The notes beneath the pieces are model-generated. The model was not told where the DNA came from, did no database searches, and saw only the letters and a program-made list of their open reading frames with translations. The translations under genes were made by a program, and so were the position numbers. Positions 45,339-52,026 of a stretch of DNA of 64,000 nt are shown here, in pieces. The first letter of the stretch is position 1. Every line of letters begins with the position of its first letter. This DNA is from Thermomicrobium sp. 4228-Ro. GTDB lineage: Bacteria > Chloroflexota > Chloroflexia > Thermomicrobiales > Thermomicrobiaceae. The stretch covers positions 62,001 to 126,000 of the forward strand of contig NZ_JAPFQM010000006.1 in the NCBI RefSeq assembly GCF_026241205.1. The letters run 5' to 3'.

Positions 45339-47222
45339 GTGCAGGTGACGAGCGAGCGCGTGGTTCACGTTCTCGCGCCACGACTCGAGCGGTGGCGCTA
45401 CCGCTGGTTCGGTCGCCTGGTCGTCAGCGACGGCGCGGGGGAACTGGCTCTGCCGATGACCGGGACAGTAGCTCAGTGGCTCCGACCTGGCGAGCGACTC
45501 GTCCTCGCGCTCGCTGATGCAGCGAACGATCCACCCAACTTCCAGAACTATGCACTGTGGAAGCTGACCGATGACGAGTTGCTACCGGTCTGGCCGCTGT
45601 GGCAAGAAGAAGCGACCTTCGAACACCGGTCGCCGCTCACCGAGACCGTCCTGGCTACCTATCGCCTCCGCTTTCGGGAGGCAGCTCGCGAAACCGACTT
45701 CCTCGCGATCGTCGAACTCGAGCAATCGCACTACGCGAGCGAACACGAGTATGTCGCTCGCTGGACGTGCCCCGTGGACGAAACGACGCTCGATGCCAAC
45801 ACTCGTCCACTCTGCCCCCGTTGCCACCGTCCCATGCGGTTCACCGACCTCCTCGGCTCCACCCGGGCGAGCCGCTTCCTGGTCGCTGAACTGGTCGATC
45901 GCGAACCGTACGAGCCGACGATCGTTGGGTATGTGCGCGTCGACCCACCCCTCCCGATCATGCACCGGCGTCTACCGGACGGCAGCCTCGTCCGGCACAT
46001 CCGCCGACAGGTCTTTCCTTCCGACTGGTTCGAGCCGACCTACTGGCCCGAACACCACTACCGCGAGCTGCGCGAGCAGGAGTCGGACGCCGATCCTGAC
46101 GAACTCTGGGCCGAAGCGGAAGAGCGCGCTCTTGCCGAATGCGACACTCGGGCTGCACGTATCGCACGCGTCGTCGTCCATTCCGACTACCGCGGTGAAG
46201 GGCTCGGCCACACGCTCGTCAGCGCTGCCCTGCGCTGGATTCTCGACCGGCGCATTCCCGAGATGCGCCGCCCCAAAGCGATCGTCGAGACGGTCGCGAT
46301 GATGGCGCGCTACAACCCGTTCTTCGAACGGGCTGGCTTCCGTTACCTTTGGGATACCGCCTCGGGCCGCCCCGTCCTGTTCCATGGTCTGGTCCCGGAA
46401 GCCGATGCCCTGATCGAGCAGTTCATCGCGACCGATTCGGTCGCTCAGCTGCACCAGGGACGTTTGTACCGCCCAGCTCTTCAACCTCCCGAGCCACTGG
46501 CCGGACCCATCCGCTTGCGTCATGTCCGCAAGGCCTACCGGCGCTCGCTCGATCTGGACCGCTTGGATCCGGAGCTCCGCGCCATCCTGCGGGCTTTCGG
46601 CGTCGAGCGACGTGTGGTCGAGACGGTCGTGCTCCGCCATCTCGATCTCGATGTCGAGCCAGGTGAGATCGTGGCGCTCATCGGCGCCTCCGGTGCCGGC
46701 AAAACGACTTTGCTCCGGCTCGTGTGGGGTGCCACGAGCGAGCAGCGCGGGCGGCGCTACCGCCCCGACTCTGGGCACATCGAGGTCCCCGCTAACGCAG
46801 TCGCTGCAGCCCTCTTACCGGGCGAGATCGAGCCCAAGTGGGGGCGAGAACCGCTGCTCCAGCGCATCGTCGCTGCGGTCGAGGACCCTGTCAGCGCGAT
46901 GGAACTCCTCAACGCCGTCGGGTTGAGCGACGCCGTGCTCTGGCGCGCGACTCCGCAAGAGCTGTCGACCGGGCAACGCGAGCGAGCGCGCCTCGCACTC
47001 CTCCTCGCTGAACGACCGAACCTCGTGCTGCTCGACGAGTTCGCTGCCCACCTCGATCCCGCGCTCGCCAGCCGAGTCGCCCGCAAGATCGCGATGCTCC
47101 TGCGACGGCTCCGTATCACCGCGCTCATCGCGACGCATCGCCCGGAAGTCATCCGAGCGCTCGAGCCGGACCGCGTCCTCGTCGTCGGCTATGGCGGCAT
47201 CGTCCAGGCTGAAGGAGCCTAG
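45339..47222 (+). CDS. GNAT acetyltransferase fused to a soluble ABC ATPase (COG2401-like)
   Basis: A 627-residue fusion. Residues 1-140 are an unassigned beta-rich region, followed by three Cys (144, 159, 162; CPRCHRP) that may form an incomplete zinc ribbon. A GNAT domain spans about 175-350, with the acetyl-CoA loop RGEGLG (285-290) and ARYNPFFERAGFRYL. From 425 comes an ABC ATPase: Walker A GASGAGKTT (449-457), signature LSTGQRERARLAL (542-554), Walker B LVLLDE (562-567) and IATHRPEV. There are no membrane helices, so it is not a transporter. Function is unknown; ABC-fused acetyltransferases occur mainly in archaea. GTG 45339 or 45345 starts it. Confidence 0.87.
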   Translation: MQVTSERVVHVLAPRLERWRYRWFGRLVVSDGAGELALPMTGTVAQWLRPGERLVLALADAANDPPNFQNYALWKLTDDELLPVWPLWQEEATFEHRSPLTETVLATYRLRFREAARETDFLAIVELEQSHYASEHEYVARWTCPVDETTLDANTRPLCPRCHRPMRFTDLLGSTRASRFLVAELVDREPYEPTIVGYVRVDPPLPIMHRRLPDGSLVRHIRRQVFPSDWFEPTYWPEHHYRELREQESDADPDELWAEAEERALAECDTRAARIARVVVHSDYRGEGLGHTLVSAALRWILDRRIPEMRRPKAIVETVAMMARYNPFFERAGFRYLWDTASGRPVLFHGLVPEADALIEQFIATDSVAQLHQGRLYRPALQPPEPLAGPIRLRHVRKAYRRSLDLDRLDPELRAILRAFGVERRVVETVVLRHLDLDVEPGEIVALIGASGAGKTTLLRLVWGATSEQRGRRYRPDSGHIEVPANAVAAALLPGEIEPKWGREPLLQRIVAAVEDPVSAMELLNAVGLSDAVLWRATPQELSTGQRERARLALLLAERPNLVLLDEFAAHLDPALASRVARKIAMLLRRLRITALIATHRPEVIRALEPDRVLVVGYGGIVQAEGA

Positions 47223-49193: not shown

Positions 49194-49239
49194 CGCTGTC
49201 TCGTTCACTCGGTTACCGGACCCGACGAGTCCTCCAGCG
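49194..49239 (-). promoter_or_regulatory. Candidate bacterial SECIS hairpin after an in-frame UGA
   Basis: On the minus strand, beginning 8 nt after UGA 49249-49247: CGCTG (49239-49235) pairs with CAGCG (49198-49194), and CTCGT (49229-49225) with ACGAG (49204-49200). An inner short stem CGG/CCG plus U-A closes an apical loop CCGGUA that contains GGU. Bacterial SECIS elements lie right after the UGA and carry a G/U-bearing loop, so this fits in position and kind. Drawn by eye, not computed. Confidence 0.45.
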
Positions 49240-50767
49240 GCTCCGCTCAGCAGAACCACGATTCGGTCAGGCGCGGCGGAGCCGGTCGCTTGCGCCGCTG
49301 TCGGGGTGGTTCGGCTGGCGGCATCTTACCGGCTGCTTCGTAGGCGAGCGCCCGGACAGCGGCGAAGGTGCAGTACGGATCCCACTGCTCGCGCGTCGCC
49401 TGCTCGGCCAGCGCTGCGACGGCCCGCTGGAGCGCGTCCATGCGCGGATCGGGGTGTCGCCAGGTATAGGTGAAATTCGCCTCGTCCAGCTCACCGAGAT
49501 ACGGCTGGATGGCCGGTTCCTCCAGCAGCGCCGATCCAGGCGGAATCAACAGCCGAATGGAAAGGTGAACCGGATCGACATGTTCGATCAGCTCCTCCTC
49601 CTCGATGAAGGCAAGGAGCTCGAGATAATCGGCGAGTGTCGTCCAGGGGGTGAACGGAAGGAGCGAGGGGCGGAGCGCGATCCCCGCCTCGTCGCAGATG
49701 CGGAGCGCCTCGACCACGTCAGCTCGCGTGTGCCCCTTCCGGATCGCGCGCAACACGCGCTCGCTCAGCAGCTCGACAGCCGAGACGATGAAGACGCAGC
49801 CGAGCCGCTGGAACTCCGGGATAAGGTCACGATGCGCAACGATGTGCTCGATCCGCGTCGTGAAGTCGAAGGTGACATCCGGGAACTCGTCGTGTAGGGC
49901 ACGGCAGATCCGCAGCGCGTGCGTCGGCCCATTGAGGAAATCGGGGTCACCGAACGTGATGTGCCGCACTCCCTGTGCCACCTGCTGCCGAATATCGGCC
50001 AGCACGACCTGCCGAGGAATCGCGAAGAATCTCCCTCGGTACACCGGCACGACCGGACAATGCGCACAGGTGTGATGACACCCCCTGGTCGTCTCCGTGT
50101 ACCCCGCCGGTACGACCCGTCCGTTCATCACGAGATGCGCATAGTGTCGCGGGGGTGGCAACGTCTCCCGGGCTGGCACAGGAAACGAGACGCGCACGAG
50201 TGCTGGTTGGGCATCCCGCTGCCGCGTGACGACACCCGGCACCGTGACCGGCTCCCCTCGCTCGAGCGCCTGCACCAGCCCCAGGAGCGGCAACTCGATC
50301 TCTCCGCCGATAACGCTATCGGCGAGTTCGCGCAGAAGGTAGTCTCGGTTCAACCACGCGTAGAGTCCGTAGTAACACAGGTGAACGCCTGGGTTGACCT
50401 CCCGGATTCGCCGGCCCAGAGCCACACCGATCCGGAGCGCGGTGTGCATCGGCACCGAAATCGCCACCAACGCTGCCCCGGCGAGCATCGTAGCGTCCGG
50501 CTCCTGAACCGCAGCGTCGATGGCTATGGGCCGATAGCCGGCCTCCCGCAGGTAAGCCAACGGCAACGCCAGGCTCAGCGGCTGGTGCCCGAGCTCGTAG
50601 CACGAGAGCAGGACGATCGCTCCAGTACGGCGGAGATCGCGAGCCGTTGCCTGCTCAGGAGATCGACGGTGATCGACGAGCGGCACGACGCACCTCGTTT
50701 CGCTGTCAAGCGTAACACGCACCGGCCCATCGCCACTCGTCCGAATATGCACCATCCGCACGCTCAT
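49205..50767 (-). CDS. B12-binding-like radical SAM protein with CUAEP tail, probable selenoprotein
   Basis: The frame reads 506 codons to TGA (49249-49247). It then continues GCG GAG CCG and ten more codons to TGA at 49207-49205, giving ...TESWFC-U-AEP... This matches the CUAEP/CCAEP-tail radical SAM family, in which UGA encodes selenocysteine. Residues 48-170 look like a B12-binding Rossmann domain without the DxHxxG His. The radical SAM cluster is Cys230-x3-Cys234-x2-Cys237 (CHHTCAHC), followed by ITFGDPDFLNGP, a typical barrel and a helical C-domain. Substrate unknown. If UGA is read as stop, the protein ends at Cys506. The ATG at 50767 has a weak ribosome binding site. Confidence 0.82.
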
Positions 50768-50814
50768 GGTGCTACACTCGTTGGCTGTCTATGTCGTCGG
50801 GTGGGGGAGGAACG

Positions 50815-52026
50815 ATGGTCGAGCGAACGGTCGTACCGAGGATTTCGGTGCGGGCAGCATCGATCCCGCCGTCTCCGATTCGTGGACTGGTTCCCCATGC
50901 CGAAGCAGCGAAAGCGCGTGGTATCCGCGTCATCCATCTCAACATCGGCCAGCCTGACCTTCCACCCCCACCCGGGGTTCCCGCTGCGCTCGCTGCCGCA
51001 GCGACGCAGCGACCGACGTATACACCTTCCCGCGGCATGACCGAGCTGGTGACCGCCTGGGCACGCTATTACCAGCGCGTCGGCCTCACCGTCGAGCCCG
51101 AGCAGGTCATCGTGACCGGAGGCGCGAGCGAAGCACTGTCTCTCGCTGTACTCGCGACGACCGATCCGGGTGATCGTATCCTCGTTCCCGAGCCGTTCTA
51201 TGCGCCCTATCAGGGCATCCTTACCGCGGCAGGCGTCGAACTCGTTCCCGTCCCCTCACCGGATGGATATGGGCCGGTATCAGCGGACGCAGTACGCGAA
51301 CGGATCTCCCCGCGCGTCCGTGGGATTCTTCTCTGTAGCCCGTCCAATCCAACCGGAGTCGTCTACGATCGTTCACAGTTCGAAGCCCTCGCCGTGCTCG
51401 CGAGCGAGCACGGCCTTTCCTTTTACAGCGACGAGACTTACCGCGAGATCGTCTTCAGCGGCAGCCGCGCACCCAGCGCACTCGAGATCCCAGGGCTCGA
51501 GAGTGCAGCGATCGTTCTCGACAGTGTCTCCAAGCGCTTCAACGCCTGTGGCCTTCGTATCGGTGCTCTCATCAGTCGGAATCCGGACATCGTCGCCGCC
51601 GTCGCGCAGCTCGCTGAGTTACGTCTGTCGCTCCCGCTCCCTGCCCAACTCGCCGCAGTCGCCGCGCTGGAGGCACCTGACACCTACGTGCATGAGGTCG
51701 TCGCAACCTATCGGCGTCGCCGGGACATCGCACTCACTGCACTCGCCCGCATTCCCGGCGTGCGCGTCATTCCACCGGCCGGCGCACTCTATCTCGTCGC
51801 GGAACTTCCCGTGGACGACGCCGAGCGTTTCGCCGTCTGGCTCCTCACCGACTTCCAGCTCGACGGCGAGACCGTCATGGTCGCACCGCTCGCCGGGTTC
51901 TACGCGACCCCCGGCTTCGGCCGCCGAGCGATTCGTATCGCCCTGGTTCAGCCCGAAGAACTCCTCCAGCGCGCTGCTCGACTCCTCGGCGAAGCACTGG
52001 CACGCTACCCCGGCCGAACCGGCTGA
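50815..52026 (+). CDS. PLP-dependent class I/II aminotransferase
   Basis: A 403-residue fold-type I aminotransferase near aspartate/aromatic transaminases. Visible are IHLNIGQPDLPPPPGV, VTGGASEALSLAVLAT (PLP phosphate loop), CSPSNPTGVVYDRSQ (substrate/cofactor Asn), SDETYREIVFSG (Asp to the pyridine N), the Schiff-base Lys in DSVSKRFNACGLRIG, and a late Arg in GFGRRAIRIALV for the substrate carboxylate. ATG 50815 follows GGGGGAGGAACG. A TACACT at 50773-50778 is a likely -10. Amino-acid preference unknown. Confidence 0.9.
   Translation: MVERTVVPRISVRAASIPPSPIRGLVPHAEAAKARGIRVIHLNIGQPDLPPPPGVPAALAAAATQRPTYTPSRGMTELVTAWARYYQRVGLTVEPEQVIVTGGASEALSLAVLATTDPGDRILVPEPFYAPYQGILTAAGVELVPVPSPDGYGPVSADAVRERISPRVRGILLCSPSNPTGVVYDRSQFEALAVLASEHGLSFYSDETYREIVFSGSRAPSALEIPGLESAAIVLDSVSKRFNACGLRIGALISRNPDIVAAVAQLAELRLSLPLPAQLAAVAALEAPDTYVHEVVATYRRRRDIALTALARIPGVRVIPPAGALYLVAELPVDDAERFAVWLLTDFQLDGETVMVAPLAGFYATPGFGRRAIRIALVQPEELLQRAARLLGEALARYPGRTG

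What the first reader, a model, noticed from the sequence alone, without database searches (positions are those of the whole stretch)
49194..50767. Radical SAM protein ends Cys-UGA-Ala-Glu-Pro: probable selenoprotein with a SECIS-like hairpin
The frame of this radical SAM protein meets TGA directly after ...TESWFC, yet the next codons are GCG GAG CCG (A-E-P), then ten more codons and a second TGA. Cys-U-Ala-Glu-Pro is exactly the tail that names the CUAEP/CCAEP radical SAM family. A hairpin (49239-49194) with a G/U-containing loop follows the UGA. An ordinary gene caller would cut the last 14 residues, including the selenocysteine and probably the functional tail. The neighbours (MFS transporter, aminotransferase) give no obvious substrate.
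Basis: partly seen in the sequence, partly recalled or inferred. Interest (0 to 1): 0.88.

Follow-up and report, generated by a model that had tools for sequence, protein, structure and literature searches.

The report
Selenocysteine-tailed radical SAM enzyme
This gene very probably reads a "stop" codon as the rare amino acid selenocysteine in the tail of a radical enzyme; the family was already named in a public database, but its job is unknown, and the genes that travel with it point to an unrecognised iron-sulfur-linked small-molecule pathway.

Summary
At 49252-49238 (minus strand) the frame reads TGC-TGA-GCG-GAG-CCG (C-U-A-E-P), then ten codons and a terminating TGA. The protein scores 766 bits against NCBIfam NF040546 "CUAEP/CCAEP-tail radical SAM (seleno)protein" (cut-off 500), so the family is known; this is a new member, and the Thermomicrobium roseum orthologue is already annotated. 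The genome has tRNA-Sec, selA, selB and selD. All 80 relatives examined carry C-U/C-A-E-P (64 UGA, 16 Cys codons). The probable start is GTG 50686, not 50767. New here: the enzyme shares 50 of its 79 invariant residues with ArsL (arsinothricin synthesis), including a vicinal tail pair. Among 201 genomes of the phylum it co-occurs with an amino-acid-ligase-type ATP-grasp enzyme (50 of 51 carriers) and with YggX (32 of 34 strong YggX genomes). Elsewhere it adjoins a formyltransferase, NfuA or Suf genes. This genome keeps formyltransferase-YggX-ATP-grasp together on another contig. I infer a small-molecule pathway linked to Fe-S upkeep, the Cys-Sec tail presenting a soft atom or electrons to the radical site; the chemistry is untested.

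The parts
49205..50686 (-). CDS of the CUAEP-tail radical SAM selenoprotein from the probable GTG start (50686-50684) through Sec to the terminating UGA (49207-49205); the mechanical ORF runs 49247-50767
   Evidence: NF040546 766 bits over residues 51-515; GAGGTG upstream of the in-frame GTG; T. roseum orthologue of similar N-terminal length. Start codon is inferred.
50057..50080 (-). CxxxCxxC motif (CHHTCAHC) for the SAM-binding [4Fe-4S] cluster
   Evidence: sequence; invariant C192/C196/C199 in alignment A1
49673..50095 (-). radical SAM core domain
   Evidence: Pfam PF04055 residues 225-365, 53.6 bits; AF2 model mean pLDDT 92
49247..49249 (-). UGA read as selenocysteine
   Evidence: Sec machinery in the genome
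49250..49252 (-). invariant Cys codon next to Sec (C-U pair)
   Evidence: W466 F467 C468 [C/U]469 A470 E471 P472 invariant in 65 sequences
49208..49246 (-). tail after Sec: AEP LEDSSGPVTE
49218..49232 (-). bSECIS-type stem-loop GGACUC-GUC-GGGUCC, loop 49226-49224
   Evidence: register conserved and covarying in 63 UGA genes; chance of such a stem in this register 0.004; T. roseum has GGACCC-GUC-GGGUCC
49205..49207 (-). UGA terminator
   Evidence: relatives stop at UGA, UAA or UAG in this neighbourhood

Best explanation
The gene encodes a selenoprotein of the CUAEP/CCAEP family. A hairpin just downstream of the UGA lets SelB deliver Sec-tRNA, so translation continues for 13 residues to a second UGA (inferred from conservation). 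The product is a radical SAM enzyme with the fold of cobalamin-type radical SAM proteins, closest in sequence to ArsL. A variable linker of about 27 residues carries an invariant WFC-U-AEP tip. I infer that it works with an ATP-grasp amino-acid ligase, a formyltransferase and YggX (NfuA or Suf proteins in other phyla) to make a small molecule used for iron or Fe-S upkeep. The most likely chemistry is that the Cys-Sec pair holds a soft atom (arsenic, sulfur or selenium) at the radical site, where the enzyme adds a SAM-derived 3-amino-3-carboxypropyl group, as proposed for ArsL; the ligase and formyltransferase would then act on that amino acid. Estimated probabilities: Sec decoding 0.98; family membership 0.99; functional link to the ATP-grasp enzyme and YggX/NfuA 0.85, to the formyltransferase 0.75; soft-atom-presenting tail with ArsL-like chemistry 0.4.
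For: Sec. SECIS: 87% of stem cells paired in UGA genes against 48% in Cys genes, slid registers 23-61%; swapping arms between genes drops pairing from 339 to a mean of 289 (z about 10); codon pairs GAC/GGT, GGT/GAC, GGC/GGC and GAT/GAT change amino acids but keep the pairing. Family. ArsL kinship: 37% identity over 405 aa, 50 of 79 invariant residues shared, C-U aligned with C-C of RCCLKC. Pathway: ATP-grasp in 50 of 51 CUAEP genomes, 18 others without CUAEP, Fisher 9e-31, 35 of 50 within 5 kb in 11 family codes; YggX 32 of 34 strong-hit genomes; formyltransferase in 22, ATP-grasp in 20, DUF169 in 10, YggX in 10 and NfuA-type in 8 of 73 neighbourhoods; Suf-type genes and NfuA by Pfam; own genome formyltransferase-YggX-ATP-grasp at C1:48802-51365. 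Fold.
Against: No protein or 75Se data. The window's own hairpin is not the minimum-energy fold of the 42 nt after the UGA (-13.1 against -7.5 kcal/mol), and its stem is not rare if any register is allowed (p 0.09). Eighteen genomes have the ATP-grasp enzyme without CUAEP, so that step is not exclusive to this enzyme. Co-occurrence tests ignore phylogeny. The formyltransferase is fast-evolving: the own copy finds few relatives at E 1e-25. No arsenic genes recurred beside CUAEP genes, so the substrate may not be arsenic. In this genome the partners lie on a different contig.
Confidence: 0.6

Rival explanations
1. The Cys-Sec tail is a redox arm, like the C-terminal Gly-Cys-Sec-Gly of thioredoxin reductase: a selenenylsulfide that shuttles electrons to the active site or to the Fe-S cluster, without binding the substrate.
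For: Vicinal Cys-Sec, an invariant tip on a linker of 24-45 residues, low-confidence tail in the model (last blocks pLDDT 73, 70, 39), at least four Sec/Cys changes in the tree, neighbours that handle iron or Fe-S clusters.
Against: ArsL, whose proposed substrate is As(III), has an aligned vicinal Cys pair without Sec, which favours substrate holding; no flavin reductase neighbour was seen to recur.
Confidence: 0.3
2. The tail relays sulfur or selenium, or ligates an auxiliary cluster, so that the enzyme inserts a chalcogen into its substrate as MiaB and RimO do.
For: Fe-S assembly and desulfurase-type genes beside the Ignavibacteriota copies; MiaB and RimO among structural matches.
Against: No extra cluster-type cysteine set among the invariant positions outside CxxxCxxC, one N-terminal Cys and the tail; MiaB-type HMM scores are very weak.
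Confidence: 0.15
3. The UGA is an ordinary stop and the AEP codons after it are a remnant or chance.
For: The orthologue in the T. roseum record is annotated as ending at the UGA.
Against: 80 of 80 relatives conserve AEP after UGA or Cys; fixed-register covarying hairpin in UGA genes; full Sec machinery.
Confidence: 0.02

Closest known systems
NF040546 CUAEP/CCAEP-tail radical SAM (seleno)protein, e.g. T. roseum WP_012643191.1
   Same: Same family above cut-off, same tail, same UGA position, same gene order in T. roseum
   Different: T. roseum annotation stops at the UGA; function undescribed. No paper in the held library mentions CUAEP or CCAEP
ArsL, arsinothricin biosynthesis radical SAM protein (NF040542, RCCLKC tail; PMC8552651)
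   Same: 37% identity, 50 of 79 invariant residues, CxxxCxxC, vicinal soft pair at the C-terminus, an ATP-grasp ligase of the same superfamily in the two plasmid clusters examined
   Different: Below ArsL cut-off (332 of 450 bits); tail Cys-Sec-AEP, not RCCLKC; no arsM or ars genes beside it; the ATP-grasp proteins are only 20-24% identical
AprD4, MgmA, OxsB, TsrM (cobalamin-type radical SAM fold)
   Same: Best solved folds, Z 25-28
   Different: 20% identity or less; AprD4 uses no cobalamin, and none has a Cys-Sec tail (own knowledge)
Thioredoxin reductase C-terminal Gly-Cys-Sec-Gly (own knowledge)
   Same: Vicinal Cys-Sec near a flexible C-terminus
   Different: Unrelated fold and chemistry; here AEP follows

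Membership tests
NF040546 CUAEP/CCAEP-tail radical SAM (seleno)protein | HMM score above curated cut-off (500 bits) | tested here: met
   766.4 bits, profile 1-466 of 468
NF040546 CUAEP/CCAEP-tail radical SAM (seleno)protein | C-[U or C]-A-E-P tail | tested here: met
NF040546 CUAEP/CCAEP-tail radical SAM (seleno)protein | Radical SAM CxxxCxxC | tested here: met
Bacterial selenoprotein | In-frame UGA aligned with Cys in homologues | tested here: met
   64 UGA and 16 TGY relatives
Bacterial selenoprotein | tRNA-Sec, SelA, SelB, SelD in the genome | tested here: met
Bacterial selenoprotein | bSECIS stem-loop a fixed distance after UGA with G in the loop | tested here: met
   no Rfam match
Bacterial selenoprotein | Sec present in the protein | not testable with these tools
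   needs 75Se labelling or mass spectrometry
ArsL (NF040542) | HMM score above 450 bits | tested here: not met
   332 bits
ArsL (NF040542) | RCCLKC tail | tested here: not met
   tail is WFCUAEP
ArsL (NF040542) | arsM / arsenic genes adjacent | tested here: not met
   window neighbours are an aminotransferase and an MFS transporter
Cobalamin-dependent radical SAM enzyme | Bound cobalamin / B12-binding domain | tested here: inconclusive
   fold matches cobalamin-type enzymes but Pfam finds only PF04055

The most novel reading that the evidence does not exclude
The CUAEP enzyme, the ATP-grasp ligase, the formyltransferase and YggX/NfuA form an undescribed, widely conserved pathway that makes a small sulfur-, selenium- or arsenic-bearing amino acid derivative used to protect or traffic Fe-S clusters, with the Cys-Sec tail loading the soft atom onto a radical SAM site.
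Probability: 0.3. Interest if true: 0.78.

Novelty: new member of a known kind. Interest (0 to 1): 0.47.

Why it matters
As a selenoprotein it is ordinary within a family that NCBI already names, although gene callers cut off its invariant tip. What matters is the assignment that comes with it: a family of unknown function now has proposed partners (ATP-grasp ligase, formyltransferase, YggX or NfuA), a sequence template (ArsL) and a testable role for the vicinal Cys-Sec. If the pathway is real, it would be an unrecognised metabolite tied to Fe-S upkeep in many bacterial phyla.

Tried and rejected
Ordinary stop codon: rejected. My first pairing register was wrong and showed no signal; the scan over registers found i+j=48. 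Rfam gave no SECIS match. The window neighbours (aminotransferase, MFS) are conserved synteny in Thermomicrobium but recur in few other loci, so I do not use them. The ArsL clusters' ATP-grasp proteins are not close relatives of the CUAEP-linked one. In-frame TGAs reported in some ATP-grasp hits look like ordinary stops near the C-terminus in the four checked. The own-genome formyltransferase was too specific as a phylum-wide probe. The Haft 2023 and 2025 selenoprotein papers are not held; the 2026 review does not list NF040546.

Full report
What is there. The frame on the minus strand ends ...LTESWFC, TGA (49249-49247), GCG GAG CCG, ten codons, TGA (49207-49205). The mechanical ORF is 49247-50767. 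An in-frame GTG at 50686 with GAGGTG just upstream is a better start, and the T. roseum protein begins at a similar distance from the first conserved block.

Family. NCBIfam NF040546, "CUAEP/CCAEP-tail radical SAM (seleno)protein", matches with 766 bits against a cut-off of 500, residues 51-515, through the UGA; the next family is ArsL at 332 bits, below its cut-off. Pfam gives only the radical SAM domain. The T. roseum megaplasmid NC_011961.1 carries the orthologue in the same gene order, annotated with the family name but ending at the UGA; read through, it continues UAEPLEDPSGP. The window lies on a 907-kb contig of a relative.

Selenocysteine. The genome holds tRNA-Sec (73 bits; ARAGORN), selD (357 bits, match with one in-frame TGA), selB (359 bits) and selA (548 bits). 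A scan of one genome per species returned 80 loci; all 80 have WFC-[UGA or TGY]-AEP, 64 UGA and 16 Cys. In 65 aligned sequences E-x-W-F-C-[C/U]-A-E-P is invariant at the end of a variable linker of 24-45 residues. The tree needs at least four Sec/Cys changes. SelB is present in all 51 phylum genomes that carry the enzyme, though 158 of 201 have it anyway.

Hairpin. In UGA genes the stem sits in one register, loop G about 20 nt after the UGA. At that register 87% of cells pair against 23-61% for slid registers, and 48% in Cys genes. Swapping arms among 54 distinct sequences lowers pairing from 339 to a mean of 289 (z about 10), and the changes alter amino acids (Asp/Gly at two codons) while keeping pairs, so the constraint is on RNA. 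The window keeps six pairs, GGACUC-GUC-GGGUCC, with a U-G where T. roseum has a C-G. Such a stem in this register arises in 0.4% of shuffles, but in 9% if any register is allowed, and an alternative fold is more stable. The case therefore rests on conservation.

Structure. An AlphaFold2 model from 65 homologues has mean pLDDT 92; the tail region falls to 70-39. Nearest solved folds are AprD4 (Z 27.9), MgmA, OxsB, CysS and TsrM (Foldseek agrees).

ArsL. ArsL-family proteins from two plasmids end in RCCLKC. The window protein is 37% identical to one over 405 residues. Of 79 residues invariant in CUAEP proteins, 50 are also in both ArsL sequences, and the Cys-Sec pair aligns with the ArsL Cys-Cys. 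ArsL is proposed to add the 3-amino-3-carboxypropyl group of SAM to As(III) (PMC8552651). I infer a related reaction here; nothing was measured.

Partners. Neighbour clustering over 73 loci found a formyltransferase in 22, an ATP-grasp enzyme with an L-amino-acid-ligase C-terminal domain in 20, DUF169 in 10, YggX in 10 and NfuA-type proteins in 8. In several Chloroflexota YggX overlaps the start of the enzyme gene. In Ignavibacteriota the enzyme sits among SufS-, NifU_N-, FeS_assembly_P- and Fe-S_biosyn-domain genes and NfuA. In 201 phylum genomes, 51 have the enzyme above cut-off and 68 the ATP-grasp protein; 50 have both (Fisher 9e-31), within 5 kb in 35 of 50 and in 11 family codes. Thirty-four have a strong YggX hit, 32 of them with the enzyme. 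Four genomes of those read have formyltransferase, YggX, ATP-grasp and CUAEP together (L156, L157, L158, L170). The window's own genome keeps formyltransferase (C1:48802-49725), YggX (49791-50054) and ATP-grasp (50157-51365) side by side on another contig, which explains why the window neighbours say nothing. These tests do not correct for shared ancestry.

Verdict. The added value is the partner set and the ArsL comparison, which turn a family of unknown function into a testable proposal. Shown: sequence, family, Sec machinery, hairpin covariation, co-occurrence. Inferred: Sec in the protein, the pathway, the role of the tail, the chemistry.

Noticed in passing
window genome C1:48802-51365 (L109 6800-9468): Formyltransferase, YggX and ATP-grasp ligase in a compact cluster, the likely partners of the window's enzyme.
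   Followed up: yes
L091 (window genome C1:1677655-1678590): selD match contains one in-frame TGA, so SelD is probably itself a selenoprotein.
   Followed up: no
L013 and L016 (Thermomicrobium sp. CFH 73360), also G174 C2 and C35: Two copies of the CUAEP gene with matching neighbouring genes on two scaffolds: a recent duplication or an assembly effect.
   Followed up: no
NC_011961.1 796591-798027 (L132): The PLSDB annotation of the T. roseum orthologue is cut at the UGA.
   Followed up: yes
L135 3172-4404, L136 7221-8444: ArsL-family plasmid clusters also carry an ATP-grasp ligase and a carboxymuconolactone decarboxylase family gene.
   Followed up: partly
genomes G008, G017, G040, G167, G183, G191, G193, G199: The ATP-grasp enzyme occurs without the CUAEP enzyme in 18 genomes, sometimes beside NfuA (L145, L146, L148); what replaces the radical step there is unknown.
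   Followed up: partly
window 45339-47222 +: One ORF combines GNAT acetyltransferase and ABC-type ATPase domains.
   Followed up: no
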